Below, one piece after another: positions 27,976 to 50,708 of a stretch of 64,000 nucleotides of DNA. Under the pieces are notes generated by a model that ran no database searches, was not told the DNA's origin, and saw only the letters and a program-made list of their open reading frames with translations. This stretch comes from Amphiura filiformis (lineage: Eukaryota; Echinodermata; Ophiuroidea; Amphilepidida; Amphiuridae), in assembly GCF_039555335.1 (NCBI RefSeq), contig NC_092631.1, forward strand, positions 4,493,501 to 4,557,500, read 5' to 3'. Position 1 is the stretch's first letter. Every line of letters begins with the position of its first letter. The position numbers were made by a program, and so were the translations under genes.

Positions 27976-28308
27976 TTATTAAAACACCAAGAGATAATTT
28001 CGAAGTAGCAGAAAATTTAGATCAAATATCTAAACTCATCGGACCTGAAGGAGGCACTCTATCCTTTGATGACAACATCGCACAACTGAACATTCCACCA
28101 GGAGCCTTGGACAAGCCAATACAGATAACGCTATCTATCGTCTCACCAGGGACCGACCATCCACCACTAGGCGACAAGTTCATTATTGCACCAATAGTGC
28201 GATTAGAACCTGATGGGCTTCAGTTCTTGAGACCTGTGACATTGACTGTGAAACATGCGGCAGTTGATTTGGCTCTGGAGAACCTCGAAGTCTGGACAAA
28301 GGCAACAG
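27976..28308 (+). CDS. Exon O: ZU5 domain
   Basis: This 111-codon exon in phase 1-1 encodes the ZU5 signature: IGPEGGTLSFDDNIAQLNIP, then PGALDKPIQITLSIVSPG and a Gly-Leu-Gln-Phe-Leu-Arg-Pro-Val-Thr-Leu strand pair. GPEGG followed by NIPPGAL is the hallmark of ZU5 domains in PIDD1, UNC5, ankyrins and the FIIND half of NLRP1/CARD8. The domain is essentially one exon. It packs against the UPA domain encoded by the next three exons. The call is firm. Confidence 0.9.
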
Positions 28309-28824
28309 GTAGGTGGTTATGGCAAAATGTTTTAAGATATCGAAGCAAATAATATACATAATTATACAAAACATTGGAAGTATATATGAAACAACTAGAA
28401 GAGCCTTAATAAATCATGATTTGTAAATTATATCACCGCGTATGACAACTCTGATTTCTTATCTGATCGATGTTCGAGCATGTCGACCAGTAGTATTCAG
28501 ATTTTCTGCAAGTACCCATTTGCTCCGAATACTGCAGATTTCTTACACGATTGGTTCCAATTGGGAGCTGTTGCGAACGTGTTTCGGAACACAAATCTAA
28601 TATGAATATAAAAGTGAACTATAAAAAACCCATCTTGTCATTTTCATTTTTTAAAGATAGGTGCGTTGTATTTAATTTAATCGCGGGAAGCGATAATGGC
28701 AACTTGATATTTAAAGTTGTTATGAAATGCCGCCCTCTATACGATCGATCATAACAATGACCTTTGACTCACTAAATGAGATCCTAATACAAATTGTGAC
28801 AAAACTACCTTTGACCTCTTTCAG

Positions 28825-29051
28825 GAGGTATTGCAAAATGGCACCCACACTTTGACGGTCAGAGAGGTGTCAGTCCAGATGTACTGTTAACAAAGGATGT
28901 AGTGAAGATACGAGTTACCCATTTCTGTGTCTGGTGTTGGCTGGGAGGGGGTAAACTACGAGTACAGATTCTGCCGTTTATTCCTGTTGACTTGCAAAGG
29001 TCAAAGGAAATTGGATTGACAGTATATGCACTGAAAAGCTTTGATGTAAAG
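28825..29051 (+). CDS. Exon P: first UPA exon with His-Phe-Cys
   Basis: Entered in phase 1 and left in phase 0, it encodes GIAKWHPHFDGQRGVSPDVL, then VVKIRVTHFCVWCWLGGGKL and a strand LRVQILPFIPVDLQRSKEIG. In PIDD1 the equivalent place reads His-Phe-Ser and is the autoproteolysis site, and FIIND proteins cut between Phe and Ser. Here the codons at 28920-28928 give His-Phe-Cys. Cys can act as a nucleophile in comparable N-S acyl shifts, so self-cleavage remains possible but unproven. Confidence 0.85.
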
Positions 29052-29104
29052 GTAAATGAATAGGAAACACATGGTCTAAAAGGCAAAGCTAAGGTTTGAG
29101 CTAT

Positions 29105-29340
29105 TTCGGCCAATATTTTGCCAGGGGGGTGATTGTATGGCCCCCCCCCCCCCCTTGTTGACACCTGTATGTGGGTTCTGACCAAAATAACCTCATAATA
29201 TTTGGCCATTTAAACTCCAAAAGTGCACATTTTTGCTAAAAATTCTCTTGCTAAAAGGTGCTGGATTCACTATACTTCCAACTTCCAAAAATTCCAACCC
29301 CATCCCCCCAATGTCAAAAAGAAATCTACGCCACTGACTC
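29105..29340. repeat. Fragment related to the hAT-type element interior
   Basis: GGGGGGTGAT..., TTGACACCTGTATGTGGGTT and TAATATTTGGCCATTT match 14510-14640 inside the hAT-type element. The fragment ends near ATCTACGCCACTGACTC. It shows that a second, truncated member of that family sits in the intron after exon P. Confidence 0.65.
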
Positions 29341-29772
29341 TCAGGGAGGTTGTACTGTGGTCAAGATGGAGATTTTTTTAATTAAGATTTCCGCTTTGGG
29401 CTATGTTGACGTCTGACAATGTCGGGAATAACGCAAAAAACGGGAGATTTTACTGATGCGCGCGAGGGCTTAGAGACGAATTATTAAATCAAGATTGCCT
29501 TAGCACTCTGGCTATACTAATAGATCCTCTATTGATATTTGAATCCGTGGAAAGGCTTGAAAATGAGGGACTTTCGTAAAATTATTATATTTCAAGAACG
29601 GTACGGTCAATTGTCAAAATTCAAAGTCAAAAGTTGTGGCGTTAACATGCCCAAACAATTAAATTTTCGACGATACAGTTGTTTCAGGGACATCCTGTAT
29701 ACGAATATCAAAATAAACAATAACTTTGTAAACTAAAATCATAACTCGAGAATGTTTTTCTTTTTTACGCAG

Positions 29773-29934
29773 TTTGTGCAGGAATATATGACAAAGGCAA
29801 ATAATACACTTTGCCTTGATAGTGTGGTAAAGGTGTATGATATTTGTAGATACAATGATAAGCTGGAAATTGACCTGAGAGCTGTCAAGGATAAAAACAG
29901 TACTGATGTATGGGAAATACAAGAAACACCTAAA
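29773..29934 (+). CDS. Exon Q: second UPA exon
   Basis: A 54-codon exon, phase 0-0 (ACGCAG acceptor, AAA|GTAAGT donor), encodes FVQEYMTKANNTLCLDSVVK and YDICRYNDKLEIDLRAVKDK. The alternating hydrophobic strands fit the middle of a UPA beta-sandwich. It directly continues LTVYALKSFDVK of exon P. Confidence 0.8.
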
Positions 29935-29983
29935 GTAAGTTTCCTTTATAACATAATAATGCGCGTATGTGTCTCTATTTGTC

Positions 29984-29984
29984 A

Positions 29985-30044
<60 letters not shown>
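29984..30044. repeat. (ATG)n microsatellite
   Basis: About twenty ATG units lie in the intron between exons Q and R. Confidence 0.95.
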
Positions 30045-30256
30045 CTAGTGACGATGATGAAAATGAAATTGATGATGATGAAATTCATGGAATTGAAACA
30101 ACTCTTTTGTTTTTGTATATGTCTGTTAGTGTATTTCTATAATCTTTGCCTTACTATCTCTCCACATATGGCACAAGCCATCGCTCGTCTTCAAGTCCTT
30201 CGAACAGCTGGAAACACACAAGTTAATTATCTGCCTTTGTCATATTTTTCGTTTAG

Positions 30257-30578
30257 AACATAGACGGGGAGAGTATTAATAATGGTTTCGGAAACGCAAG
30301 TTGTCGGTTTGTTCTAACTCCCAAAGCCGACAAGGTTGATAGCATTATAGCAACCCTTAGCGTCCAAAGGGAAGCTAATGACCCACGTGCTATGGATGTG
30401 TATATTACACACATCATGGACAAGTCATCTCCTCATGTCAAACAACTGCAAGGAACCACAGGCGCCAAAACTACGGCAAAACTCACCAGTTTCAATGCTA
30501 ACAACGCAGATACCACCGAACATAGTTCTATCAATGTACCCGGTACTTCTACAGCATCATCACCCTGGTATAGGAGTG
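30257..30578 (+). CDS. Exon R: end of UPA and Ser/Thr-rich linker
   Basis: It encodes NIDGESINNGFGNASCRFVL, ATLSVQREANDPRAMDVYIT and then a Thr/Ser/Asn-rich tail (FNANNADTTEHSSINVPG). It ends AGGAGTG|GTAGGT in phase 1. CRFVL and SVQREANDP..DVYIT fit the last UPA strands. The tail is a flexible linker toward the CARD. The next phase-compatible exon with a matching domain is the CARD exon at 50392, on the far side of the Ngaro-type insertion. Confidence 0.8.
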
Positions 30579-30634
30579 GTAGGTATCAGAATCCTTTTAC
30601 TATTATGCGGGATTACAGCTGTAGAAGGTTTCGT

Positions 30635-30778
30635 TTATTTTCTCTTTCGCGCATGCTCAGCCGAAAATAAATGATTTTCTATTTAACTCATCGCTCCTTT
30701 TGCGCACATATATACAACATAACACACCGACCTTATGGTCCTTAGGGGAACACCGGACTGCACGACGAATTCAGTAGT
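30635..30778 (-). repeat. Ngaro-type element, terminal repeat B2
   Basis: This 144-bp repeat is the 3' end of the element. It is identical or nearly so to 31197-31340. A non-repeated segment of about 260 bp separates it from repeat A2. Confidence 0.9.
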
Positions 30779-31042
30779 TGGCTCGCTTGATGAGGGCGGT
30801 ATGATGCTCATGGTTCCAGTGAACACCAGCACATACATGACCCGATGGTATACTTACTTATTCCAAAGTTACGCCCTTACCACTCACCACCTCCCAACTC
30901 TTCATTTTCCAAAACTCCATTGCAAACAGCTCCTTCTTCATTCTTAAGTTTTCTTGTTGTGATCCTCCACTTCCACTGAAACTGAAAAGAATAACTCCGC
31001 AAAAACTTGTCAGTGATAAGTTTTTGTAATAAAAATAAATTC

Positions 31043-31340
31043 AACGGCGTAGCCAGCGACTGAAGTCTGTGATGTGCAAACGGTCAATGACTGCTACCTA
31101 CCAATCTTGCCACTCCCACCCCTCCGATCTCAATAGAATTTCCCGCCATACATTTGCATATGCAAAATACAACTTTCGACCAATAGAAAATTAGCATTAT
31201 TTTCTCTTTCGCGCATGCTCAGCCGAAAATAAATGATTTTCTATTTAACTCATCGCTCCTTTTGCGCACATATATACAACATAACACACCGACCTTATGG
31301 TCCTTAGGGGAACACCGGACTGCACGACGAATTCAGTAGT
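31043..31340 (-). repeat. Ngaro-type element, adjacent repeats A2 and B1
   Basis: A2 (31043-31201) copies the 5' end of the element (36463-36621). B1 (31197-31340) copies its 3' end. They overlap by TTATT. This head-to-tail junction is the diagnostic split-direct-repeat layout of Ngaro-type elements. Confidence 0.9.
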
Positions 31341-31541
31341 CTCCCCTTAGTCAATACTAAAGAACGGGCAAAGGAAGCAATAATATAGACTTTCATATTT
31401 AATATACATCATTTTACGTTCTAAGATCTCATACCGGGATCTCATATTTACAAATTAATTGAATAAAGGTCTACTATTTTCACATTCTGAAGTAGGCCCT
31501 ATAAAAGGCAAAACATCATAATTATAACAATAAGCTGCATT

Positions 31542-32546
31542 TTATATACCTAAATTCATAGATACCAGGAGTTTGTTGGACATAGTCTCCTTCACGTACC
31601 TGTCCTTAGAGGAATCTGACTTCCAACGTCCATGACGTTTAAACAACCTGTCAGGTACTCCGAAGGCTGCAGCTGCCGATGCACCCCCGGCACGCAAACT
31701 GTGCACTCCGAACTTGCTAGCATCTAAACCAATCTCTCCCAATGCCTCCTTGAGTATCTCTCTACACCTTGAGTAAGATAATTTTCTAGAACGTACAACA
31801 TATTTGTTTTGAGATTTGAGCATAGTAATTGATGTGAATAGATATTGAGATATATCTAAACCGATAAAACCTGCGCACTCCATATATCTCCTAAGCATAG
31901 CAACTGGGCATGTACTCTTACCGGTCGCACCAATTATGACCCATGCTCCCTCTCTAAGTTGATCCGTCTTACTCTTTTCTATAAAGATTTTTACATGTGA
32001 ATCACACAACTCTAAGTCGCAAACCTTAATATTCGACAATTCATCATATCGCAGAAAACCTGCGTATGCTACAAGCATCATGGTACACAATCTCAAATCC
32101 TTTAAATTATCTTGATTAAACTTATCAATAATAGAACGTAAATTGTCTGCTGTAATAGGCTCCTTTCTATTATCAGCTGGCTTTGCCAACAAGCGTTTCA
32201 GACCATCCATTAACAGCTGTAAAAAACGCGTTTCACATGGATTATTCATACATGTCTTTAGACAGCAATTAAAATGCCATTTAATTGCGAAAAATGCCGT
32301 TTCAATCCTGCTATAAGGAGCATTGTCGTTGAACATATGAATAAAATACCTTGCGATATCCTCGTGTACAGCTTCTTTAGAGTTAACTTTATTCAGTCTA
32401 CACCAGACTTCCCAAGTTGCAATGGCATGCTTATACTTCTTGACTGTGCTCTCAGCCCTCGAAGCATCCATAACGTGAGCTATTGTATTTCGGAATGCAT
32501 TCTCTCTGAAAATAAAAAATAGGAAAACACACATCCGTCCATCCAT
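31542..32546 (-). CDS. Ngaro-type element: tyrosine recombinase
   Basis: A long open frame encodes a phage-integrase-like tyrosine recombinase, with the C-terminal HSLRAGG and HGRW segments followed by the catalytic Tyr region. In this family the enzyme integrates a circular DNA copy. It is the 3'-most ORF of the element. An intron-like start or a different initiation site is possible, since the first residues are hydrophobic and unlike relatives. Confidence 0.85.
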   Translation of the reverse strand: MDGRMCVFLFFIFRENAFRNTIAHVMDASRAESTVKKYKHAIATWEVWCRLNKVNSKEAVHEDIARYFIHMFNDNAPYSRIETAFFAIKWHFNCCLKTCMNNPCETRFLQLLMDGLKRLLAKPADNRKEPITADNLRSIIDKFNQDNLKDLRLCTMMLVAYAGFLRYDELSNIKVCDLELCDSHVKIFIEKSKTDQLREGAWVIIGATGKSTCPVAMLRRYMECAGFIGLDISQYLFTSITMLKSQNKYVVRSRKLSYSRCREILKEALGEIGLDASKFGVHSLRAGGASAAAAFGVPDRLFKRHGRWKSDSSKDRYVKETMSNKLLVSMNLGI

Positions 32547-32639
32547 CCAATATTTATCTTATTACTGGTATATCCATTACCAAATTCATTTCTTGCATAT
32601 ATTCATATAATATTATACTAGGCCTATGCCTACATAATT

Positions 32640-32985
32640 CCAGTGAATATTAATTCCGGAGAGAAAAATCTGACATCAGTTCCAGTGAACTATAATGCAT
32701 TAAACAAAAACGCTCGTATATACATAAAGCCCCGTGATCGTGAACCATTAAAGCTCCAGTGAGTTATATAACAGGCATACTAAATTCCAGTGAATTTAAA
32801 TTCTGATGAATTAAACATCCAACTTCTGCTCCAGTGAGCTATCGTATGTATTCACATAAAAGCTCCCGTGAGCTATATAATATCTGGCTCCAGTGAGCTA
32901 TTTCTTAGCTCCAGTGAGCTATATCCCAGCTCCAATGAGCTATATAATTATCTTAGCTCCAGTGAGCATAATATCCCATAAACTT
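32640..32985. repeat. Short tandem motif CCAGTGAGCTAT between two element ORFs
   Basis: About ten diverged copies of GCTCCAGTGAGCTATAT separate the reverse transcriptase and recombinase ORFs of the Ngaro-type element. Confidence 0.8.
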
Positions 32986-32990
32986 CAGGA

Positions 32991-35015
32991 TTACCTTCTT
33001 CCGTCCAATCTTACACAAATTACTTCACTAGTGAATTCTGCTGAGCCAAATATAGATTTCTTATTTCTACCTTGAACAAATATAAAAGCGGGGTCAGAAA
33101 ACCTGATCACTTTTACAGCTATTTTGGCAAACTCACTATCCTTAGAGAACAGGACAGGCCAGAACGGTGCCGATGGCCAGTGGGGAATAACAAGCGATGC
33201 TTGTGCTTTACAAACTTTCACATGTTTAACAGCTTGACCAACAAGAGATATAGGTGGGACCAACCAATTGTTCTCCCCTGCCCATGAAATTGCAAAAGCG
33301 TCTACCTGGCTAGTGTTGTGACACCAGAATTTTGAATTAAACGACCTTAACTTCGCATTCTGATTGTCTGCAAAACGGTCAACAGAATGGGGACCCCACA
33401 AAGAATCCATAAAATTAAAGAAACTCTGGGAAACTCCCCAATCATCAAAATCTATCTCCCTGCTTAGAGAATCTGCTAGGGTGTTCTCTTCTCTCGGAAC
33501 CCATTGAACATGGAGATCTATGTTCTCCTCTCTGCAAAAAGATGCTATATCAATACTTAATGTATGCAGATCCAATTTCATGCTTCCTTTCTTGATCACA
33601 GCTGCAACACCCATATTATCTGAGAAAACTTTCACACACTTGCCTTGTAATCTAGGAACAAACGCTCTCAGCGCTAAATCCACGCCTTTCAATTCCCTCC
33701 ATGTGGAGCTCTTACCGATTTCTTGTTCCGACCAACTCTGATTAAACATGATTATAATATCATCCTGTCCCCTTGTCCATGCTCCGCAGCCACTGTGGCT
33801 GGCATCTGAATACAGTAATACCTGTGGTAACGAATATTCAAACACATATCTGTTATTCATTTTTCTTAGGTTCGTTCTCCAGAAAAACAATTCTTCAATA
33901 ATAGGGCTGTCCCCTGGAACCTTGAATATCTTATCCCAGTGTGTCTGATGATCACAAATCGTCATGATCGAGAATCTAGTTCTTAGCTGTGCAACGTGTC
34001 CACATACTGGTATCAGAGATATAATTCTCCCTACAAACTCAGCTAACTGGCGAGCTGTAATATAAGGTAGCTTACCCTTAAGACCATCAATACATGTGAT
34101 GATATTATTCACTCTTCTCTCTATTACTTTCAACAAACCTTTCTCTGTATCCCAGGTAAGTCCCAGCCAATCAATCCTCTGTGATGGCGTCCAGACGGAC
34201 TTCTCTGAATTAGGGACCAATCCAGCTTTCAAAAGATCCTGTTTAACAGAACTAGCAATGATTTCACAAGCACTATATGATGGTGCAGTGCACCAACCGT
34301 CATCTAAATACACTACAATAAAATATCCCTTGTCTCTCCAATGCTTAACCAAAGGTCGAATTATTTTGGTAAAGACTCTAGGTGCCGAAGTTAACCCGAA
34401 GGGTAGGACTCTAAACTCAAAGTACCTTAAACCTGTCCCAAAATCCCACGCAAAACTGAGATATTTACATTGATCTGGATAAATGTCTATGTGGTGATAC
34501 CCAGATTTCAAATCAAATGAAAACATATAATTGTTCTTCTTAAAGTATAATAACGCATCAGACCAGTCTTCGAAATGAATTTTCGTTTTCCAAACGTGAT
34601 TGTTGATATAACGAAGATCTAAAATAAGCCTCTTCTTCCCTGAACTTTGAATAGAAACTGAAAGAGGGTTTATAATGTCAGGCGGTAAAAATAATTCAAC
34701 AACTAAATTCTTCGATAATAAATCATTAACGGCTTCCGAAACAAAATCAGAATTGTCACGAGCTGATTTATTGTTCCTGAAAACTGCTGGCTCAGGAGTA
34801 TTGTAAAACGGGATCACATAACCAAATTCAATAACACGGAGAATGTCAACTGGTGCTCCAATCTCTTTCCAAAATGCGATGTTCGCCTTCATTCTTCCTC
34901 GCACTATAGGTTCAGCATTGCCTTGTTCGTATTCGTAAAAATTGTTCAAAAAGAAATCAAAATCGTACCTAAAATCAGTGTCCCCAGCCGAAAGAACATG
35001 TTGTAATTTCACCAA
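32991..35015 (-). CDS. Ngaro-type element: reverse transcriptase and RNase H
   Basis: The open frame of about 670 codons carries a DIRS/Ngaro-type reverse transcriptase with YLDD at its active site and an RNase H-like region (LLYSDASHSGCGAW). It is followed by a domain typical of this group. No break is evident. The order relative to gag and recombinase is as usual for the family. Confidence 0.9.
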   Translation of the reverse strand: MVKLQHVLSAGDTDFRYDFDFFLNNFYEYEQGNAEPIVRGRMKANIAFWKEIGAPVDILRVIEFGYVIPFYNTPEPAVFRNNKSARDNSDFVSEAVNDLLSKNLVVELFLPPDIINPLSVSIQSSGKKRLILDLRYINNHVWKTKIHFEDWSDALLYFKKNNYMFSFDLKSGYHHIDIYPDQCKYLSFAWDFGTGLRYFEFRVLPFGLTSAPRVFTKIIRPLVKHWRDKGYFIVVYLDDGWCTAPSYSACEIIASSVKQDLLKAGLVPNSEKSVWTPSQRIDWLGLTWDTEKGLLKVIERRVNNIITCIDGLKGKLPYITARQLAEFVGRIISLIPVCGHVAQLRTRFSIMTICDHQTHWDKIFKVPGDSPIIEELFFWRTNLRKMNNRYVFEYSLPQVLLYSDASHSGCGAWTRGQDDIIIMFNQSWSEQEIGKSSTWRELKGVDLALRAFVPRLQGKCVKVFSDNMGVAAVIKKGSMKLDLHTLSIDIASFCREENIDLHVQWVPREENTLADSLSREIDFDDWGVSQSFFNFMDSLWGPHSVDRFADNQNAKLRSFNSKFWCHNTSQVDAFAISWAGENNWLVPPISLVGQAVKHVKVCKAQASLVIPHWPSAPFWPVLFSKDSEFAKIAVKVIRFSDPAFIFVQGRNKKSIFGSAEFTSEVICVRLDGRR

Positions 35016-35638
35016 TCCTCTGTTTGGCCCGGCTGAAAAAAAATATCTGAAGTTGAATGACCCGCTTCTTGACCTGCACTAAGTCCGGGTGAAAAAATAC
35101 CTGCTGTATTTGAAGTCATAGACCCATAAGATGGAGCTATATAAAATGTATAAAAATAAAAATCTATAATAACCAACGCCCGGAACAAACGGCATTTTCG
35201 TTAACTTGTATTACAACACATCCGTATTAAGATTACATAAAAATCATTGATTTCTCTCCACCGAGAAAACAATCATTTAACCACGTCGGTTATTCACCTA
35301 ACCAACCAACTTCGACACAAAAACTCCCAACTCGGGTTTATAGATCGGTTACATAATTATTATTCATTCAACAAAACTAGTCATACGACGTATAAATCAC
35401 AACTTAAACTGCTTAAACCCGCTTACACGGTCCCGTGCATACACGATAAAGAAACAAAAATTCCTATAAAACGATCGTCACTCACGCGTTCAACTATGAC
35501 AACACCGATTGGGCATTTCATTATTATATTATCACGCGTTACACTCGCTCGATTCTTTAATTCACAATACACGAAACATTAAACAACTACCATCCACCAA
35601 ATTTATAAAATATGTGCCTACCTGCACATTGATCAGCT

Positions 35639-36400
35639 TCACTGGCCTTGTTTGTAATCTGGCTTGAATTGTCTAATTGCTTGACAATTATACTGCCAGT
35701 GCCCCTTTTCTCCACACCTGAAACATTGGTCAGTAGGTTTGGGAACTCCCCTCCTTGTAGTATTAAAGGTGACACCGCTTCCTGAATACGGGTATCTATT
35801 CTGTTGCAAATAGCCACGAAAATTACTATGAGGATTGGGATAAGTCTCATGACGACGGCTCTGAGGGTATGGGGCATTCCTACGGAATTGACCTTTCTTA
35901 GGCTTTCTTTCTTTTGCTGACGCGGCTCTGACAGCCGCCTTGATTCTCTTTTCATCATCTGAATTATCTGCTAACTCCTCCGCCTTATATTCATCTACTA
36001 CCTTCCAACTTTCGTTCTTATCAGCCAATTTTATATGCTTGTTTCTGGTTTTAATATCTTCTAGACCAGCCCTCAGCTCTGCTTTAGCGAAGGAAATATC
36101 ACCTTTCTCTAACTTTTCCAACGCCCTGTCTATTCTTTCTTTAACCTGGACGTTGAATTCAAACTGAAGCTTGTTACCTCTGAACTTGAAATGTGCCTTG
36201 GCCGACTCTCTCGCTGATTCAAGAACTTGATTTTTAGTTGAACTTAATGCGTCATCTATATACTCTCTGACGCCACCCACTTCAGCTTTAATAATATCAG
36301 AAATACTCGCTAAAGTTAAAACTTGAATAGGTTGTACTTCACCTTGTTCTTGATGAACTTGGCCTGCTACTACTGGAGCTTGTCCTTCTCTGTTCGACAT
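35639..36400 (-). CDS. Ngaro-type element: gag-like protein with zinc knuckle
   Basis: The open frame of about 250 codons is charged and helical in its middle and ends in a CCHC zinc knuckle (CFRCGEKGHWQYNC), as in nucleic-acid-binding gag-like proteins. It is the first ORF of the element, starting about 60 bp inside repeat A1. Confidence 0.85.
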   Translation of the reverse strand: MSNREGQAPVVAGQVHQEQGEVQPIQVLTLASISDIIKAEVGGVREYIDDALSSTKNQVLESARESAKAHFKFRGNKLQFEFNVQVKERIDRALEKLEKGDISFAKAELRAGLEDIKTRNKHIKLADKNESWKVVDEYKAEELADNSDDEKRIKAAVRAASAKERKPKKGQFRRNAPYPQSRRHETYPNPHSNFRGYLQQNRYPYSGSGVTFNTTRRGVPKPTDQCFRCGEKGHWQYNCQAIRQFKPDYKQGQ

Positions 36401-36462
36401 AATCAGACTCGAAAATCCAAAAAATCACACAAAGTTCTAGAAGAACACTATATCCAAATTGA

Positions 36463-36621
36463 AACGGCGTAGCCAGCGACTGAAGTCTGTGATGTGCAAA
36501 CGGTCAATGACTGCTACCTACCAATCTTGCCACTCCCACCCCTCCGATCTCAATAGAATTTCCCGCCATACATTTGCATATGCAAAATACAACTTTCGAC
36601 CAATAGAAAATTAGCATTATT
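36463..36621 (-). repeat. Ngaro-type element, terminal repeat A1
   Basis: This is the 5' end of the element, nearly identical to A2 at 31043-31201. The flanking TTATT is followed by host DNA (GTTTGCAGATAATC). Confidence 0.9.
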
Positions 36622-37185
36622 GTTTGCAGATAATCAGAAATAATACTACCCCTGATTCCAGAAAATTATTTTTGGGGATTGAAAAAATATTGTCCTGTTT
36701 TGACAAATAAGAGATAGCTCAATCCTAATCCTTAAGTTGGATTGGAACTAACTGGCCATGAAAGTCCGTTATAATATTTGGCCAAAATTTGGAAACAAGG
36801 GCAAAAAACGTGTTTTTATGATGTGTTTCGTATGCTGTGTCAATGAAGGGGTAAAGACTTGTACAAAGTCTAATTTAAGTTTTAGCAAACACATGTTCTA
36901 TTCGATTATATAATCATTATTAAGATTTACATACAATAGTAAGATTAAAAGTATTTTTTTCGCTTATACTTTGCTTTATTTATGCTTAGACTTGTGGCAA
37001 GTCTCTGAATTGTGTCACTGCAATTGTAAGAAAATGTGCAAGTTTGCACATTTTTGTCCATTTCCCTCAAATAATTCTCAAAAATATAGGCCCCTACAAA
37101 TTTGATTTTATTGCTACTAAGTTTCAAGTAATGGATTGGATTTGGCTATAGATGTTCATTTGGCAAAACAGGAAAATATCATCAT
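36622..37185. other. Intron DNA, nothing recognised
   Basis: AT-rich sequence after the Ngaro-type element with no exon, repeat or RNA gene that I can support. Confidence 0.5.
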
Positions 37186-37189
37186 CATC

Positions 37190-41670: not shown

Positions 41671-41728
41671 GTTTATAAAAAAAAATAAATAAAAAAAAAA
41701 ATTGGCCCATGAATTTTTTTTTTACGTT

Positions 41729-42301
41729 TAAGGGAATGGGTATGAACGTTTGGACAGTATTTATTGTGGGACATTAGAGCACATCGGACATACATGTATC
41801 GAATGGTATTCTGAATACGAAGAATGTCCTTCTGTTATCAAATAATTTTGATTTTTGAAATTCGCAATGAAATACACATTTTATGGCAAATAATTAAAAA
41901 TTGATATTGTTGACATTTAACAGTACTTGAAGTGTATGTAGGTGGGATGAAAGGCCGACGATCAATTGAAAATTTTGACCTTTCGTATTGAAGATATGGA
42001 TTTTTTTCCAAAACACCAAAAAAAAATAGCTTTTTCTCCCAGCTACATACACTTAAAGAATATATTATTAGATTTATAAAATTTACTTCGAGGACTGTTA
42101 TTATATCAAAAATGTGAAAAATATCAAATTTTAATAATTTGTCATAAAATGTGTATTATATCGTGAATTTCAAAAATGAAAATTATTTGATATCAGAAAG
42201 ACATTCTTCGTATTCAGAATGCAATTTGATATGTCTGATGTGCTCTCATGTCCCACAAAAAATACTGTCGAAACGCTCAAAACGCTCATTCCAGATCCTT
42301 A
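41729..42301. mobile_element. Long-TIR hairpin MITE, ~570 bp
   Basis: Left arm (GGGACATTAGAGCACATCGG, TCTGAATACGAAGAATGTCC) and right arm (GGACATTCTT-type complement near 42190-42300) are inverted for about 180 bp or more. Little unique sequence lies in between. A half copy is present at 1466-1575. No coding capacity is present. Confidence 0.85.
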
Positions 42302-42340
42302 ACGATCTGGCCATAGCCATGAAGATCTGACCATAGCCAT

Positions 42341-42680
42341 GCAGATGGTGCCCACCTGGACTAGCTTTAAACTAGTCAGTACTGCTGGACTAACAAGGAT
42401 GACTAACCTATCTTAGTCCAGCTTGACTAGCTTTTGCTTAGTCGCTTGACTAGTTTGATGTTAGTCCAGCACGCTGGACTAGTTAAGGTTAGTCACTCGA
42501 CTAGTTATTGACTTAAGTTAGCCCAACTGGTGCCCATCTGGACTAACATAGCGCTAGTCAAGCCAGCTGGACTAATGTAACATTAGTCCAGCTGGCTTGA
42601 CTAACATGCTCAAACTAGTCGATCCGACATGACTAACCTCAAGCTAGTCCAGCCTGCCGGACAACCCTAATTTAACCATA
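42341..42680. repeat. Palindromic CTGGACTAG / CTAGTCCAG cluster, left
   Basis: The words GGACTAG, CTAGTC and TTAGTCCAGC recur about fifteen times in both orientations, making a self-complementary array. A related array lies at 46323-46445. The two may be the arms of one foldback element of about 4.1 kb that contains several other insertions. Confidence 0.7.
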
Positions 42681-43177
42681 CATGCAGTTGCAGATTGGAT
42701 AGTCTGTAAAGGGTTATACAGTTGGAAGGTAAATGAGTTTGTCACTCATATTCACAATAATGTAGTCACACAATCAAAAGTTTTGATGGATCCATTTTGC
42801 ATGTGCATCAAATCATAAATCAGAAAAGTTTCATGTGCATGATTCAGATAAATCCATCTTTGACAGGCAAAAATCACATGACTTTTTTGTGTAACAGCTT
42901 AACTCGTTATTTTGCACAGCTGATGTATGCAGGATATACAGCATTTTTTTTCTTTTTGAGTTGGAATTGTTGGAAGTCTATTCCTACCACAGTTGGGTCA
43001 CATTTCAGCAGCACCTGAAAGCAAATTATGCAAAAAGTTACTGTTAGTTAAACTTCAATTAGCAAAATGAATATTCCGCTTTCACATCTGGCGGTTTTCT
43101 GAAAAAAGTACCAGTGAAAAATTCGAAATTCAGGATCATCAAAATAATTTACTTTATTTACAGTTTAATACATAGTG

Positions 43178-43815
43178 TACGGAGCCCCCAAAGTGACATG
43201 GAAGAAAAAAACTCTGGGTCCGACTTTGTAACTCTGGGCCCCGAAATAGTAACTTTGGGGCCAAGATAGTAACTTGGGGCCTGAGATAGTAACTCGAGCG
43301 CCCCAAGATAGTAACATGGGCCCCGGGGGTCACTCCCATTGTGGCCTGTACACCATCCGCGATAATCAACTTTTGAAAAGCACCCTAAACAAGGATTTAA
43401 CCCTTGGCTAAAACGACACCCTAAACAGGGATTTCATTCCTAACATCAAATTTCATACCCTAAATTTCATTTCCGCGTATTTAGAAATTGCAATTTTGCT
43501 ACCCTTTTTTCCAATTTTTCATGTTTTGACACCCTAAACGCGATACGCGCGTATCGTGCCTACCCACGAAAAACGACCCTTTTTACGCGTTTTCATTATC
43601 GCGGATGGTGTACAGGCCACAATAGGAGTGACCCCCCTGGGCATGGGCCCTGACTTAGTAACTCGGGGTCCAAGATAGTAACTCGTAGCCCCGAGATAGT
43701 AACTTGGGGCCCGACTTAGTAACTCAGGGCCGGACTTACTAAGTTGGGCCCTCAAGTTACTATGTCGGACCCCAAGATAGTTCTTTTTCTTCCGTGTCAG
43801 TTCAGGGGCTCTGTA
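43178..43815. mobile_element. Foldback-like element with GATAGTAACT repeats in its arms
   Basis: Inverted ends TACGGAGCCCCCAAAGTGAC and (reverse complement of the right end) TACAGAGCCCCTGAACTGAC both continue into GGAAGAA. Each arm is an array of about five units of GGGGCCCNAGATAGTAACT. An inner inverted pair (GGCCTGTACACCATCCGCGA and its complement) encloses about 220 bp. ATAGT flanks both ends and may be a short target duplication. Confidence 0.8.
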
Positions 43816-44197
43816 ATAGTCCCATCAATTAAGGGCTGAAATCAAAACTCAACCGGCGGTTGACTGGCGGTTCTGTCCAGGTGCCATTGTTTAGAACAAT
43901 AGCAAAAGGACAGGTGGTCAACCGCCTGTCGAGTTTTGATTTCATCCCTAAACCAACAACAATTTTTTTTTTATGTTTCAAAATGGGAGCTTAATTTTGA
44001 CAAATGACAACGGGCAGGAAGCTTTAAGAAGTTCTTACACCTCCAAAATATTGGTTGGTCATGTATTTCCACACCATTTTTTAGAGTCCACCATCAGGGA
44101 CAGTACTTAATACAAATATAGTATACTGTCTTAAATTGCACAAGCAGTTTTCACATTTAGAACCAAAAATGTGTTTCATAATGGCCATAGAACCATC

Positions 44198-44480
44198 ATT
44201 GGTGGCACCGGGGCATTTGCCCCCTCAATATTCTTCCCCCACCCCACTTATTCTGAAAAATTATCACTTTTTGGGATGATTTTGTACTCATTCACTTTGC
44301 CACCCCCAAAAACCAATCTGTGGCAGCACTATACAGGGAGCATTTTTCTTACTCCCCAAGTTTTTGAACTAAAATTACAGAAAATTTCACTTTTTGCAGC
44401 AATTTTGTGCAAATTTAGACGATTTTCCCCCCCTTTCACCCCCCCCCCCCGAAAAAAATTCCTGATGTCGCCACTGAGAA
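44198..44480. repeat. C-rich degenerate element ending in GCCACTGAG
   Basis: Begins GGTGGCACCGGGGCATTTGC and ends GATGTCGCCACTGAG, with C-rich interior and repeated CACCCCC and AAAATTTCACTTTTTG phrases. A similar fragment occurs near 44935-45045 (ACCGCCACTG). It is probably an old non-autonomous element. Confidence 0.45.
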
Positions 44481-45251
44481 CCAGTTTATATCATCTAAAC
44501 ATGCTAAACGGAACATATTTCAGGTCTAAAATATCACCGGGATTATGAGAATATATATGAGGTTTCTTCTGATACAAAATGTCTCCATTTTGATCTAGGA
44601 TAAAGAACTAGTATGAGGCTGTCGATCACACATTTTTCAATTACCTTTGGTATTTGAACGAAATCATTCAGACTAGTTGTATGTTGGCGTTGAGTCTTTC
44701 AAGCTTCACGGTTGCATCGTCAGCCACAGAGCCTATAAAAAAAAATCATGGAATTAAAATGGGATTTGACAAACTGTCAATTGTAGATTTTGGGTCACAG
44801 TTGTTATTCTTTAAAAAAGTAATTGGTTGCAGACCATGCACATAGCATTTTTTTGCCTAAGTTGTTGCTAATTTAAGGTACGGTATGATATATTTAAATG
44901 AGTCATATTTGAAATTTTTTTTGAATTTTTTTTTCCAGCAATTTTGGGCAAAATTTGTTGAAATTCACTTCCCCCTTCATGGGGGGAGGGGAGTGAATTT
45001 CAGGGGCCATGTCACCGAAAAAAAATTCTGGCACCGCCACTGTACTTAAAAAACCTATTCAAGTGTTCTGTTCATGAAAGTCAAAATTGTGAAAATAGGG
45101 CTAGTTTTTCAATCCAAATTCCTGTTTTAATTCAATCGTTTAGAACAAAATAAGGGTAAAATAAAGCTCAAAATGCAATCTGCAACAGGGGTTGTTTTGA
45201 ATTTTCTGACAATCATCATCATCATATGTTATGCCTTTGATAAATTTATAT

Positions 45252-45592
45252 TAAGGGGAGCCCTGTGCAATAATTGTGAGCCCCCTGGGGGAATTTTCAA
45301 ATGGCAGAAATGCTTGCCCCCCCACCCCCCTATAAAAAAAAAAAAAATTGCTCTTGAACTTTACGACCAAGGCCCACTTTTAGAGCAATTTATTTTTAGC
45401 ATTTTAGAGCATGTTATTTAAAAAACGCCTTATGAATGTGTGCCAATTATTGCTTGCCCTCACCCGGGGTGTCACCCCCCCTTATCGGAGCAAAAAATTG
45501 CCCCCCCCCCCCTTTGGCTGGCCAAAATAATCTTGCCCCTACCCAATTTTACCTCAGGGCTCAGTGCTCATTACACAGCCCTTAATTTAACT
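45252..45592. mobile_element. MITE with AAGGGCTGTGYAATNANNNTGAGC ends, copy 1
   Basis: The left end (GGGAGCCCTGTGCAATAATT, GTGAGCCCCCTGGG) and the right end (CAGGGCTCAGTGCTCATTAC, ACAGCCCTTAA) are inverted. The C-rich interior encodes nothing. A second, partial copy lies at 46832-47030. Confidence 0.7.
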
Positions 45593-45739
45593 TGGACTAT
45601 TGGATAACTTGGGCCCCACAAGCTTATCAATACCACCAGGGTGCTTATAATAATAATCATTAAAGGTAAAATATGGTGCCATGGCTTGAACTTTTAGGGC
45701 CAAGGCCCAATTGCAAGGGCATGTACACATCTAGGTAGA

Positions 45740-45975
45740 CCCGTACGCAGAATTTTTTTTGGGAGGGTGCTGATTTTGAAAAAGTGGACCTTTTTTCCAA
45801 GGGGGAGGGGGCGGTTATGTAAAAAGTGGACTTTTCCTCAAAAATTTGGACATTTTTTTGGCCAAAAAAGCGTAAAAAACCTGTTTTTTTGCTCGCTATG
45901 CTCGCAAATTGTCATATTTTGGGACTTTTGTATACTTTTGCACCCCGGCACCCCCCCTGCGTACGGGCCTGCATC
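45740..45975. repeat. Fragment with CTCGCTATGCTCGCAAATTG phrase
   Basis: GTGCTGATTTTGAAAAAGTG, GCGTAAAAAACCTGTTTTTT and CTCGCTATGCTCGCAAATTG match the 15.39-15.62 kb part of the hAT-type element. It is a third location for that repeat family in this window. Confidence 0.65.
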
Positions 45976-46322
45976 TAGGGTGTATTGCTGGCACTACATG
46001 TATTGCTATACAACTAAAAAAAATAGTACACAGGCCTACATGTTGTATCACAGTGTTGTATATTTTTGGTCTTTCTGATGTAATATATTATAATAATTGC
46101 AACTTTACATAATCAAAGCAAGACTTACATTGTAGCGGAAGACATCTTCTACAAAATCTTGATGCATTTAATTCCAGGACATTGGGGCAAGAACTTGAGG
46201 TGTTGCTCTGCAGTGCAGCGTATATGTGTAGTACAGTATCAGTAGTTGACTCTGACAGTTGACAGTTGTGTTTCCCCACTTAGAGTTGGGTCAGAGGTCA
46301 CATACCACAGAGTGGCAAAATT

Positions 46323-46445
46323 TAAACTTGAAGCTAGTCGAGCAACCTAGTCAAGCCGGATTGACTTAACGTTAAGCTAGTCCATCTACCTTTACCAGTC
46401 CGTCCAGCTTGACTAACCATAAACTGGTCAAACTAGTATGCAAAT
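46323..46445. repeat. Palindromic CTAGTC cluster, right
   Basis: GCTAGTCGAGCAACCTAGTC and several further CTAGTC, AAGCTAGTCCATC and CCAGCTTGACTAAC words form a short array related to 42341-42680, in the orientation expected for an opposite arm. Confidence 0.6.
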
Positions 46446-46831
46446 ATTCTAGCCTGGTTGGTCTGAATGGCATGTATTCCTATAGTCACGGTTGAAATAT
46501 GCAAAATCAATGCAATTTCAATTAACAACATTTGAACTGGAACACATAGTGACACATCTATGATGTTGATTTGAAGTCATTCCAATTGTCTGCTTTCACT
46601 GTCACCATATGTAACCATTTTCATACTTGGCTCTGTGAATGATGTTGATCAAGTCACGATACTTTCTGATGTGATATTCCTCAATTCCTGTCTGAAACAA
46701 CAAAATAAAATATTGATACAAAGTAATAAACATTTTGGTCATCTAAATGTTTATTCATATCATTTTCAGTACCGCGGTATTTATTTAAAAAGTCACTAAA
46801 TAACACATGTTCCGATTCTTTATTCTTGTCT

Positions 46832-47030
46832 GGGGCTGTGCAATAATTATGAGCACCCCTGGGGGGTAAAATTTCCAACGGCTCGCCAAAAATCGCTTGC
46901 CCCCCCACCGGCCCACCAAAAATCGCTTGTTTTCCTAAGCCTTTTATAGCATTTTATTTAAAAGGCGCCCCAAGAATGTGCGCCAAAATTGCTTGTTCCC
47001 CCCCGACCCATAGTTTTTGACCTATGACCT
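46832..47030. mobile_element. MITE with GGGCTGTGCAATAATTATGAGC end, copy 2 (partial)
   Basis: GGGGCTGTGCAATAATTATG and AGCACCCCTGGGGGG match the left end of 45252-45592, and AAAAATCGCTTGCCCCCCCA and AAAGGCGCCCCAAGAATGTG match its interior. The right end is not found. Confidence 0.7.
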
Positions 47031-48873
47031 CCAGCAAACCACAAGCCATTTCAGCATGAAACACATATTATTTGGATTTTTCTACTTTTATAAGCCTACA
47101 TGTAAATACATAGGCCTATAAGCAGAGAGGCTGCAATAAGAGTCATGATTTAAGATTTAAAGAGGCCATATGATTTTAAGGTTTTTGAGCAGCACTTTTG
47201 GACAAAGCTTCTAATGGCGATAAAATTTATTTACACACATTTTACCCGGCTGGCATTCCTGAAAAGTGACTTGATATTTGGGTTGCAAAATGCAAAAACG
47301 CTATACCGTAGCTTTTAAACATAATTAAGCAGGGGTGCAAATTGTGATTTCTTCCTCAGGAGCAAGGTTTTTAGGCTCAAGATTTCCTCAATCGTACCAT
47401 GCATAAAATAGCTTTATTCTGTACTTCAAAAGATGAGAATGTTAACACATTGTGTATTTTTAGAGCGACTCAATGTTAAGTCTTCAAGCGTCAAAAAAAG
47501 GCTTCATGAGGACAATGTGCGCGCGTAGCGGGCAAAAAATTGGTATTTTACACTAGTTTGGGGTCAATTTTGGTTGGACAAAGGCTCATATCCCCTTTTA
47601 TTTTCCTTTACCCCCCATTTCCTCTTTCATTTTATGTCAGAGGGAGCACAACTTGTTCAGTACTATATGGTGCTTCTTTTTAAATTTCCTCAATATTTTC
47701 CAGTTTGTCCTCTTCTCAGTGGCAGTAGTATTGATACACTAAATTCCTTCATAACTTTTGTTCCCATAAAATCCTCATTGCTGCCTCTCTATAAATTTCC
47801 TCAGATATGATTGCCGCCTCTCTGTTAGTTTCCTCAGATATGTGCCATGTTTCCACCTGCCTCATCCAACTTTTTTCTTTCCTGTTAAATTACATTGAAT
47901 ACCTCCTATGGTGATGAATTGTAAATTTCCTCATATCCCATTTCCATATTCTAACACCAACATCTTCCTCTTTTTGCTCTTATTTCTTGAACAATGTTGT
48001 GAATTCCTCCAAATTTTGCACAACCAGTGTCTTTAAAGATTTCCTCTCTTCCATTCAGTAGCTTCACTGCCTCACAGTCCTCCCCTAATTTATCTTGTAC
48101 CTCACTCCTCTTCTTTTTCTTTCCTCTTTCCCCCTTCCTCTCCTCTCCTCTTTTTCTTTTCTTCTCTCTCCCTTCCTTTTTCCTCTTTTTCTTTTTTCTT
48201 CCCATGGCATTATTTCCTCAATTTTGACTCTCATTTCCTAGGAGCGGTGCTCCCCGCTCCCGCACAATTTGCATCCCTGATAATTAAGTACCGTATGCGG
48301 TTCAGAATAAGCAGTTCAAAATAGGCCTAGAATAGGCCTAAACACCCAGGCGCAAGGCGTATAAAACTGGATGCCCAACAAGAGCCCAATTTCAGAAAAA
48401 GTAATTAAAATTTTAAAATTGCCGCATAGCGGCTATCGCGTCGCACTTGCGCGACGCAGGGTGGGTATCTGAGGGTTGATGTGATCATGTTCCCCCTCAG
48501 AAGTAAGAAACTTTTGCCAAATGAAGACCTAATTGAAGCGATTTGGTGGACAATTTTTGCACTATTAGTTTGTAAAATCTTAGTTTGAAAAAGCAGAGAA
48601 TTTGTGAAATGAGCAGTCCATGAAGTCTTTTGTGGGGCTTTTGTGGACAAATTTTAATTGACAAATGTCGAAAGCAGAAGCGAAAATGGCTGGCCACTTG
48701 TTTATCCACTACGCAGGAGGTGTCTGAGCCTGAGGGGGATGTTCCCCACACAGAAGTTTGAAAATGAATGTCCAATTGAAGCCATTTGCTGCATTATTTT
48801 TAAACTATCAAAAAACATGAAAAAGGGGGTGGGCAAACTCAATTTGCAAAATTTTAAATGTTACACAAGCGAC
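47031..48873. other. Intron stretch with pyrimidine-rich zone
   Basis: From about 47570 to 48240 the plus strand is strongly pyrimidine-rich, with many TTTCCTC words and a dense CTTTTTCT run near 48100-48200. No gene is apparent. Two diverged direct copies of an AGAAACTTTTGCC..AATTGAAGC segment lie near 48500 and 48750. Confidence 0.45.
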
Positions 48874-48880
48874 ATTTAGG

Positions 48881-49358
48881 CCCGGGGGGCACTCAACTAA
48901 AATTTTGGTAGGGGCGTGCGGCGCGGAGCGCCAAACTTTGGGAACTAAGAACTAATTTTGGGTCAAAATAGGGGCTTGATGAACTGAAATTTCAACATAT
49001 TTGTGGGGCTCTGTGAACTAAAATCGGCCAAATTATAGGCTTTGGAGCTAAAATTTCCAAATTTTAGCTAAAGAGCTACAGTTGTCAGAGTTTGAGGCTC
49101 AATGAACTGGAGCATATTGCAAATGTGGGGCTTAAGGAACTGCCGGAGAGCCTGAAAAAGGGACCCTTGATCGCTGCACATATTCAGATTCCCTTTGACA
49201 AATTAAGCGTACTGCTAGCCGTCCAGCGCGTATTATTTGCACAAGGTCCAATGCACACGCTTGACGTCGCGCGCGTATACGCGATGGTTAAGCTGTCAAA
49301 TGAAATCTGATTAAGAATTTACCCGTACCACCTTTACATGTGAGTGTCCCCCCCGGGT
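48881..49358. mobile_element. CCCGGGGGG-ended TIR element, second copy
   Basis: Ends CCCGGGGGGCACTCAACTAA and GAGTGTCCCCCCCGGGT are inverted and match the element at 19201-19707. ATTTAGG flanks both sides (48874-48880 and 49359-49365), again 7 bp. The interior is a degenerate array around GGGGCTTGATGAACTGAAAT. Shared ends, target-duplication length and internal repeat style place both in one family. Confidence 0.8.
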
Positions 49359-49365
49359 ATTTAGG

Positions 49366-50149
49366 CCTATAAAACTTGAAACTCGCAATTAAAGCATGGA
49401 TCGATGTTGAAGTAAGCAGAGTCAGTCTTCATAGGCATGTAGACGGGCCAGCAGTAATTTTCACATGTTTTTGTGCCGAGGACCCGCCTTCAAGTAATGC
49501 CTATATAAAATTAATCACAGGCCTAGCCTAGGGCCTATATAATTATAGGGCCTACTTACGAACCAAATGTCCGTTTTTTAGGCACGGGCCTATGTGCAAT
49601 GTAAGTATTTCTCTTCTCCTTTTCTCCTCTCTCTTTTTCTCCTTTCCCTCTCTTTCTCTTCTCACCTTTTTCTTTGCAAAAGAGTGGAACACCTAAAATG
49701 CATTGCAAGGTGGCATGCCAATGCAAGTCATACATTCACCAGAATGAACTTGCGTCTTCTAATGATTTAATAAACTGTTCCATTAATCGTGGATTCAAAT
49801 TCAGTCAGCATATTTACCACAAATAATGTTATTTTCATATCTCCTAGTCCTACATCGTGTTCATAATTCATGTTCTTGAGCTGACATGCATGACATGACA
49901 CTCTCCGCTCGCGGAAAATGAAACCAAATGCGATTTATGCATGTGAAATTACAAATTTTTTTTTATAGTTTATACATACCTATTCGATGTCGTCAGTGGT
50001 CAGCCTGAATCCTCAAACATTCTGTTAAATATGTATATGCTTTTGGGCCAAGATATATGAATAAAAACCTTGTAAACGGCATCTAATTTACTTTTTATAA
50101 GCTTAAACACATCCGGTGATTGATTAGAATTTTTATGAAAACTTAAAGA
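49366..50149. other. Intron stretch, nothing recognised
   Basis: No exon or defined repeat. A short TCTCC/TTTTCTC-rich run lies near 49610-49675. Confidence 0.45.
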
Positions 50150-50335
50150 CAGCTCGTGGTACTACCAGCTCTGGGCCAGCAAAAGTGGCTTGATGTGGCC
50201 CATTGCAAGCGGCTCACACATATGGTCCAATCCAAGTGTCACTTTTGCTGGACCACACGAAAGGTCCTTTTGTTGATTCAATCGCCGGTTCCAGGTGTGG
50301 CCCAACACTGGCCCAGTACTGGACCAAATCTGCCA
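50150..50335. repeat. CTGGACCA/TGGCCCA cluster, second site
   Basis: GGGCCAGCAAAAGTGGC, its inverted partner CACTTTTGCTGGACC, and TGGCCCAGTACTGGACCA make a compact self-complementary cluster that shares words with 37190-37440. It ends about 55 bp before the CARD exon acceptor. Confidence 0.7.
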
Positions 50336-50391
50336 AGTTCCCTGTGATCACCATCGTTGTGTTCTGTTATTTATTTTAAATTGTTTTCCAG

Positions 50392-50708
50392 ATGACCAGA
50401 CACCAAGTGCCAACCCAATTCAGTATCATTTAATTCTGGATTACGCTATGGACACCCTACACCGTAACCTAAACACAAACAATATTCTGATAAGGCTCAG
50501 ATCTAGAGGTGTTCTGAGCGAAGACGAGGTCGCCGAGATTAACAATATCCAAGGACTTGGAGAAAGGGTGACGAGGTTACTCGCAATTCTCAAAAGCAAA
50601 GATGTACACGCCTACGATGAATTCATGAGTGCCTTGCGTGAATTCGACCATGATTTATTTTGTGAAGTAAAAAACATCGAAACTTGGAGGTATCCAAATC
50701 GGTTGTGA
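50392..50708 (+). CDS. Exon S: C-terminal CARD, last coding exon
   Basis: Acceptor TTTTCCAG leads into a phase-1 exon of about 105 residues ending in TGA. It encodes IQYHLILDYAMDTLHRNLNT, LIRLRSRGVLSEDEVAEINN, ERVTRLLAILKSKDVHAYDE and FMSALREFDHDLFCEVKN. The six-helix order, the GVLS-E-DEV-EI turn and F..AL...DHDLF match the CARD family, which assembles by homotypic contact with caspases and adaptors. The phase fits exon R at 30578, and a C-terminal CARD after UPA is the NLRP1/CARD8 layout. If the R-S link is wrong, this would be the last exon of another CARD gene. Confidence 0.85.

What the first reader, a model, noticed from the sequence alone, without database searches (positions are those of the whole stretch)
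27976..50708. Invertebrate ZU5-UPA-CARD protein joined to duplicated TRADD-N-like domains
The exons encode ZU5 (GPEGG, NIPPGAL), UPA and a C-terminal CARD, the FIIND-CARD core of vertebrate NLRP1 and CARD8. The N-terminal half carries two coiled-coil/TRADD-N-like blocks and a TPR-like region instead of NACHT-LRR. About twenty exons fit one phase path summing to 3747 nt (about 1248 codons). I do not know of a described protein with this order. A cytosolic sensor or adaptor that links TNF-receptor-type and CARD-type signalling is inferred.
Basis: partly seen in the sequence, partly recalled or inferred. Interest (0 to 1): 0.93.

Follow-up and report, generated by a model that had tools for sequence, protein, structure and literature searches.

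The report
Brittle-star CARD8-like cell-death sensor gene
A brittle-star gene appears to join two TRADD-type adaptor domains to the kind of tail found in the human inflammasome sensors NLRP1 and CARD8, and related tails occur in this animal behind other front ends, which suggests a mix-and-match sensor family outside vertebrates.

Summary
A 23-exon phase-consistent path (3145-50708, +, 4071 nt, 1356 aa) encodes two TRADD-N blocks, a TPR-like region, ZU5, a UPA-position block and CARD. ZU5, CARD, TRADD-N block 1 and an overlooked C17orf113-type zinc finger pass Pfam cut-offs; TPR is sub-threshold, UPA undetected. Source: Amphiura filiformis or a close relative. By my reading 19 of 22 joins recur in other A. 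filiformis protein models; the link between exons 8 and 9 has only indirect support from a paralogue. No transcript was seen. A one-base difference breaks the full zinc-finger exon. At the ZU5/UPA border the window reads H-F-C; seven related models read HFS, HFC or HCC, where PIDD has HF/S and CARD8/NLRP1 SF/S. Related ZU5 tails sit behind other front ends (RING-B-box, weak TNFR-like, Roc-COR-kinase). Best reading: a sensor whose N-terminus restrains a self-cut UPA-CARD fragment. Cutting, release and output are inferred. TRADD-N fused to FIIND or UPA-Zu5 is already published (Kaur et al. 2021), so this is a new variant of a known kind. The TNF-receptor link is unsupported.

The parts
3145..3253 (+). 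exon 1, start ATG (MAAALTCSD...)
   Evidence: aligns with the N-terminus of paralogue P0010, 57% over 37 columns; phase fits
9312..9439 (+). exon 2, opening strand and helix of TRADD-N block 1
   Evidence: P0010 and P0009 alignments; P0010 model and fold match 27-174
10550..10847 (+). exon 3, TRADD-N block 1
   Evidence: PF20694 4.3e-06, above cut-off
11428..11736 (+). exon 4, coiled-coil part of block 1
   Evidence: P0009 joins FPK|DTGNQ and QGNL|DLEIQ; long helix 224-271 in the P0010 model
12333..12460 (+). exon 5, opening strand and helix of TRADD-N block 2
   Evidence: 98% to P0009; copy of exon 2, 84% DNA identity
13012..13312 (+). exon 6, TRADD-N block 2
   Evidence: 98% to P0009, whose segment is 61% identical to block 1; acceptor weak, accepted on the protein alignment
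13758..14057 (+). exon 7, coiled-coil part of block 2
   Evidence: P0009 and P0010 alignments
16965..17024 (+). exon 8, basic linker (DTPTVSKKASKRKAQTSNES)
   Evidence: P0010 residues 281-308, 64%, E 0.002
20300..20446 (+). exon 9, linker; reference model P0006 starts at an internal Met of it
   Evidence: P0006 1-23, 91%; join from exon 8 rests on phase
20854..21132 (+). exon 10
   Evidence: P0006 residues 20-117, 85%; acceptor weak
21258..21523 (+). exon 11, zf-C17orf113 zinc finger; the path uses the in-frame donor at 21284, because the full exon is out of frame relative to P0006
   Evidence: PF25431 2.7e-09; frame change
22148..22192 (+). exon 12, acidic linker
   Evidence: similar, not identical, to a linker exon of P0006
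22529..22582 (+). exon 13, linker
   Evidence: P0006, 94%
22684..22728 (+). exon 14, linker; exons 13-14 resemble a linker in TRADD-N paralogue P0010
   Evidence: P0006, 94% over 17 residues; linker test
23643..23698 (+). exon 15
   Evidence: P0006, 89%; weak donor, score 3.4
25252..25449 (+). exon 16, TPR-like
   Evidence: P0006, 97%; TPR_12 2.2e-05 in P0006, below cut-off
26419..26549 (+). exon 17, TPR-like
   Evidence: P0006, 94%
27299..27393 (+). exon 18, partly derived from an antisense copy of exon 7
   Evidence: P0006, 91%; 80 nt at 91% to 13888-13809 inverted
27976..28308 (+). exon 19, ZU5
   Evidence: PF00791 2.4e-11; P0006 and P0001 alignments
28825..29051 (+). exon 20, end of ZU5 region, H-F-C motif, start of UPA-position block
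   Evidence: P0001 73%; motif context
29773..29934 (+). exon 21, UPA-position block
   Evidence: P0001 76%
30257..30578 (+). exon 22, end of UPA-position block and linker
   Evidence: P0001 65%
50392..50708 (+). exon 23, CARD and stop
   Evidence: PF00619 5.6e-08; P0001 74%; CARD fold of P0001
50906..51155 (+). degenerate second copy of the CARD exon (stops, gap)

Best explanation
One gene of Amphiura filiformis or a close relative encodes a cytosolic sensor: two TRADD-N/coiled-coil blocks, a zinc finger (or none, by an alternative donor), a TPR-like region, then ZU5, a UPA-position block and a C-terminal CARD. Shown: the domains except UPA and a full TPR, the exon path, the recurrence of most joins in other models, and H-F-C at the ZU5/UPA border. 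Inferred: the bond before this Cys (Ser in three of seven related models) breaks by an acyl shift as in PIDD, CARD8 and NLRP1; the N-terminal part stays bound and restrains the UPA-CARD fragment; destruction of the N-terminal part by an invader or by regulated turnover frees UPA-CARD, which polymerises and recruits a CARD-bearing partner such as a caspase. TRADD-N, TPR and zinc finger would be bait or recruiting surface. Related tails behind other front ends in the same animal fit this division of labour.
Against: No transcript. Join 8-9 has no crossing protein; the short donor of exon 11 is my choice to keep frame; a 21-residue TPR segment of P0006 between exons 15 and 16 was not found in the window. 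Reference models split the locus into P0009 and P0006. UPA undetected; residues 1-358 of the P0001 model are under pLDDT 50. The window has Cys, not Ser. A His near -27 (CARD8 H270, rNLRP1 H942) has a counterpart, at -26, only in the window and P0001, 2 of 8. P0005 and P0012 are near-copies in ZU5 and so not independent. CARD passes Pfam's cut-off in P0002 and P0011, falls below it in P0001 and P0004, and is not found in P0003. PF20694 is below cut-off in P0010 and not found in P0009. The full-length search found no TRADD-N...CARD protein. A survey lists NLR and gasdermin E/pejvakin but not caspase-1 for echinoderms, and ASC only in vertebrates (PMC11508797, passages), so the downstream partner is unknown.
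Confidence: 0.45

Rival explanations
1. Two or three neighbouring genes: a TRADD-N gene (exons 1-8), a zinc-finger/TPR gene (9-18) and a stand-alone ZU5-UPA-CARD gene starting near 27963, as paralogue P0001 is modelled.
For: Reference models P0009 and P0006 are separate; P0001, P0002 and P0003 lack TRADD-N; an in-frame ATG lies at 27963 just upstream of the ZU5 acceptor; no protein crosses 8-9.
Against: P0006 crosses TPR to ZU5; P0009 starts at an internal Met of exon 3 and ends in a changed frame; exon 9 is open upstream of P0006's Met to an acceptor in the right phase; P0010 joins TRADD-N to a linker of the exon 13-14 type.
Confidence: 0.25
2. A decaying locus: a recently broken copy of such a gene amid transposon traffic.
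For: One-base change in exon 11; frame changes at other places in the reference models; degenerate second CARD exon; TPR segment not found; a 20-kb last intron with a retroelement.
Against: All 23 exons as used are open in one frame, exon 11 only with its short donor; dN/dS between blocks below 1 (no significance test); window and reference break at different places. The published Flye assembly is from Nanopore R9.4.1 reads, QV 31.6, 3.22% heterozygosity (PMC11310086, passages), so length errors are likely if the protein models derive from it, which I assume; how the window was sequenced is unknown.
Confidence: 0.2
3. A scaffold without autoproteolysis: ZU5-UPA as an uncleaved, ankyrin- or UNC5-like closed module in front of CARD.
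For: Cys instead of Ser in the window and in 4 of 7 related models; upstream His mostly absent; the nearest solved ZU5 by sequence are ankyrins.
Against: His-Phe-Ser/Cys sits exactly at the border, Phe in 7 of 8; Cys is a usable nucleophile in this reaction class (PMC3210808).
Confidence: 0.25

Closest known systems
TRADD-N proteins with FIIND or UPA-Zu5 in invertebrates (Kaur et al. 2021, eLife, PMC8195603)
   Same: TRADD-N of the TRADD/DEDD2-like kind in one polypeptide with ZU5/FIIND; TPR fusions also reported; lineage-specific expansion with retrotransposon associations; autoproteolysis predicted there too
   Different: Here two tandem TRADD-N blocks, a C17orf113-type zinc finger and a C-terminal CARD in a defined exon order, and Cys at the predicted cut. 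'brittle' and 'Ophi' occur 0 times in its main text; its supplementary architecture tables were not read
CARD8 and NLRP1 (FIIND-CARD inflammasome sensors)
   Same: ZU5, a UPA-position block, C-terminal CARD; F-[S/C] at the border; a different N-terminus in each
   Different: No NACHT-LRR or pyrin domain found; TRADD-N, zinc finger and TPR-like region instead; HF/C rather than SF/S; no profile match for UPA
PIDD1
   Same: HF-type motif after ZU5
   Different: PIDD cuts at HF/S and has LRRs and a death domain (recalled); this ends in CARD and has one ZU5
Amphiura filiformis P0011 (RING-B-box-ZU5-CARD)
   Same: ZU5-to-CARD part 63% identical over 449 positions
   Different: TRIM-like N-terminus instead of TRADD-N
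Vertebrate TRADD
   Same: TRADD-N domain
   Different: TRADD has a C-terminal death domain and no ZU5 (recalled)

Membership tests
FIIND-CARD proteins (NLRP1/CARD8) | ZU5 domain | tested here: met
   PF00791 2.4e-11; also 7 of 7 members of A4
FIIND-CARD proteins (NLRP1/CARD8) | UPA domain | tested here: inconclusive
   conserved ~150-aa block in the right place but no Pfam or PDB profile match and no usable model
FIIND-CARD proteins (NLRP1/CARD8) | C-terminal CARD | tested here: met
FIIND-CARD proteins (NLRP1/CARD8) | F-S cleavage site with Ser nucleophile | tested here: not met
   window has H-F-C; of seven related models three have H-F-S, three H-F-C, one H-C-C
FIIND-CARD proteins (NLRP1/CARD8) | catalytic His 27 residues before the nucleophile | tested here: inconclusive
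   His at -26 and -28 in the window, at -26 in P0001, no counterpart there in the other 6
FIIND-CARD proteins (NLRP1/CARD8) | observed self-cleavage into two bound chains | not testable with these tools
   needs protein
TRADD-N proteins of invertebrates (TRADD/DEDD2-like) | TRADD-N domain | tested here: met
   PF20694 above cut-off for block 1; not so for block 2, P0009 or P0010 taken alone; a poor P0010 model lists TRADD-N structures first
TRADD-N proteins of invertebrates (TRADD/DEDD2-like) | Death-superfamily domain in the same polypeptide | tested here: inconclusive
   CARD in the same phase path but no transcript; join 8-9 only indirectly supported
TRADD (vertebrate) | C-terminal death domain | tested here: not met
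   C-terminal domain is CARD
PIDD1 | HF/S cleavage motif | tested here: not met
   H-F-C in the window
TPR proteins | TPR motif above curated cut-off | tested here: not met
   best TPR_12 25.0 bits in P0006, cut-off 30.1; 16.5 bits in the window's pieces

The most novel reading that the evidence does not exclude
Brittle stars have an expanded, combinatorial class of 'functional degradation' sensors: one autoproteolytic ZU5-UPA-CARD cassette, using Cys or Ser, paired by exon shuffling with interchangeable baits (tandem TRADD-N with zinc finger and TPR, RING-B-box, TNFR-like receptor, and ZU5-UPA alone behind Roc-COR-kinase), so that the NLRP1/CARD8 logic exists outside vertebrates without NLR domains.
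Probability: 0.3. Interest if true: 0.8.

Novelty: new variant of a known kind. Interest (0 to 1): 0.6.

Why it matters
If true, the guard-by-destruction logic of NLRP1/CARD8 is not tied to NLRs or to vertebrates: one animal carries a related releasable CARD tail behind several front ends, which makes it testable whether the tail is the ancestral part and the N-terminus the swapped bait. A natural series of H-F-S, H-F-C and H-C-C sites in one genome would also test which nucleophiles this fold tolerates.

Tried and rejected

Papers: PMC8195603 section 11 whole plus passages; PMC3210808, PMC8081665, PMC7483925, PMC11310086, PMC11508797 passages only; all others seen as search listings. That this exact order is undescribed rests on 9 paper searches (one search was for the genome) in an open-access library without preprints, main texts only.

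Limits of counts: the 19 of 22 supported joins are my own reading of alignments, not a program's count; the three unsupported are 8-9, 11-12 (short donor) and 15-16. Splice sites were scored with a position table recalled from general knowledge, and some weak acceptors (13012, 20854) were accepted because of protein alignments. Exon ends were partly chosen to fit the phase, so the phase path alone is weak evidence. The 34-residue linker match was noticed by eye before it was tested. The border motif was pulled out with a pattern that already allowed only F/C and S/C; all 8 of 8 sequences tried matched it. The dN/dS values carry no significance test. Of the 8 proteins, P0007 and P0008 (ZU5 part only, no source name) and P0006 (ends inside ZU5) were left out of the motif count. 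My confidence in the best explanation went from 0.5 to 0.45 and that in decay from 0.15 to 0.2 on re-checking, because CARD is below cut-off or undetected in three of the five other models with this tail (P0001, P0004; P0003) and because the echinoderm survey lists no caspase-1.
Full report
WHAT WAS CHECKED. The window is animal DNA. Ten of the twelve proteins returned by three searches are named Amphiura filiformis (brittle star); the other two (P0007, P0008) have no source name and share only the ZU5 part. P0006, P0009 and P0010 are all given with a contig of 86,018,223 bases. The window is therefore from A. filiformis or a close relative. It is not the copy behind those models: P0009 is 94.6% identical over 349 columns and exons match P0006 at 85-97%. 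A published A. filiformis assembly was built from Nanopore R9.4.1 reads, with QV 31.6 for its Flye stage and 3.22% heterozygosity (PMC11310086, passages); I assume the models derive from it. Whether the window is another allele or a recent duplicate I cannot say.

DOMAINS. Single exons give ZU5 (2.4e-11), CARD (5.6e-08) and TRADD-like_N (4.3e-06, block 1), all above Pfam's cut-offs, and zf-C17orf113 (2.7e-09, above cut-off). Block 2 gives no PF20694 hit, nor does P0009, and P0010 is below cut-off. But block 2 is a tandem copy of block 1: exons 2-4 and 5-7 have lengths 128/298/309 and 128/301/300 and DNA identities of 76-84% in the self-comparison. dN/dS between the copies is 0.395 for the two TRADD-N exons together, 0.436 for the central exon and 0.665 for the coiled-coil exon (Nei-Gojobori counts in my own script, no significance test). 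TPR is weak: 0.0095 in the window's two exons, 2.2e-05 in P0006, below cut-off.

GENE PATH. Twenty-three exons from 3145 to 50708 join into one frame of 1356 codons plus stop, with GT-AG at all 22 introns. By my reading 19 of 22 joins appear as contiguous residues in other A. filiformis models: 11 in P0009 or P0006, 7 in paralogues, 1 through a similar exon. P0009 and P0010 cover the TRADD-N half, P0006 runs from exon 9 to the start of ZU5, and P0001-P0004 and P0011 cover ZU5 to the end. The unsupported joins are 8-9, 11-12 and 15-16. For 8-9 there is indirect support: P0010, after its counterpart of exon 8, runs into 34 residues that align without gaps to window exons 13+14 with 16 identities; none of 200,000 shuffles reached the score, and the next best placement in P0010 scores 14 against 70. 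So in a sister gene model the TRADD-N exons and linker exons of this type are together. The split of the reference into P0009 and P0006 looks like an effect of changed frames and internal Mets rather than of gene ends, but that is inference.

A BREAK. Relative to P0006 the zinc-finger exon differs by one base in length, so the full exon leads to an early stop. A strong donor at 21284 (score 11.4 in my table) keeps the frame without the zinc finger, and the path uses it. P0006 and P0009 change frame at other places. Assembly error, allelic breaks and decay are all possible.

THE BORDER MOTIF. At the ZU5/UPA border the window reads THFC. The seven related models read HFS (P0001, P0005, P0012), HFC (P0002, P0004, P0011) and HCC (P0003); P0005 and P0012 are near-copies of each other there. 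PIDD cuts at HF/S and CARD8/NLRP1 at SF/S; Ser, Thr and Cys can all start this kind of reaction; CARD8 F296H is severely defective, and UNC5b has Leu at that place (PMC3210808, passages). The His 27 residues upstream that CARD8 and NLRP1 need (PMC3210808, PMC8081665, passages) has a counterpart within one residue only in the window and P0001. The motif is suggestive, not proof. UPA itself matched nothing, and the ZU5-UPA part of the P0001 model was too poor to use.

OTHER FRONT ENDS. The full-length search returned 2 proteins of 7992 candidates scored: P0011, RING-B-box-ZU5-CARD (each above cut-off), and P0012, Roc-COR-kinase-ZU5 without CARD. P0004 puts the tail behind a weak TNFR-like region (0.0073, below cut-off) and what looks by eye like a membrane span; its CARD is 20.1 bits, below the cut-off of 23.9, as is P0001's (21.9), and P0003's is not found. 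P0001 to P0003 carry only short N-termini. These are gene predictions, and their joins were not checked.

MECHANISM. I propose a sensor of the NLRP1/CARD8 type: self-cut at the border, N-terminal restraint, release of UPA-CARD when the N-terminus is destroyed, CARD polymerisation and recruitment of a CARD partner. In NLRP1 the release step is called functional degradation (PMC7483925, passages). Shown here: domain content, exon path, border motif, related tails. Inferred: cutting, restraint, release and output. Kaur et al. [quoted passage not shown] Against a copy of the vertebrate pathway: a metazoan survey lists NLRs and gasdermin E/pejvakin but not caspase-1 for echinoderms, and places ASC in human, mouse and fish (PMC11508797, passages), so the partner would have to be another CARD protein.

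NOVELTY. TRADD-N with FIIND or UPA-Zu5 is in print, so the kind is known. The exact order, the tandem TRADD-N, the zinc finger, the Cys at the border and the set of front ends in one brittle star were not seen in the passages, sections and listings named under Tried and rejected. I file it as a new variant of a known kind, interest 0.6.

Noticed in passing
window 30635-36621, minus strand: DIRS-like retroelement (family name recalled) in the last intron: zinc-knuckle ORF 35642-36424, reverse transcriptase ORF 32994-35078, tyrosine-recombinase ORF 31545-32558, with split direct repeats 30635-30778/31197-31340 and 31043-31201/36463-36621 at 100% identity. It begins about 57 bases after exon 22.
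   Followed up: partly
window 27299-27393: Exon 18 is partly built from an inverted copy of the gene's own coiled-coil exon (80 nt at 91% to 13888-13809), read on the antisense strand; model P0006 contains it too.
   Followed up: partly
window 50906-51155: Second, degenerate copy of the CARD exon with stops and a gap just downstream of the real one.
   Followed up: yes
window 21949-22371 and 22527-22907: Tandem duplication carrying a pair of small linker exons, 81.6% identical.
   Followed up: partly
window 3762-7176: LINE-like element with endonuclease and reverse transcriptase in the first intron, in two overlapping ORFs of different frame.
   Followed up: no
window 53803-54861, 54990-55712 and 57001-57666: Rhodopsin-family GPCR in a single ORF (7tm_1 2e-30), ORFs that look NHL/beta-propeller-like by eye (no match above cut-off), and a Macro domain (3.7e-07) downstream of the gene.
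   Followed up: no
window 59326-61212: Long array of a roughly 20-nt unit around AAACCTGGTTTTTC in both orientations.
   Followed up: no
window 1-432, minus strand: GIY-YIG endonuclease fragment (1.9e-06), possibly from a Penelope-like element (recalled).
   Followed up: no
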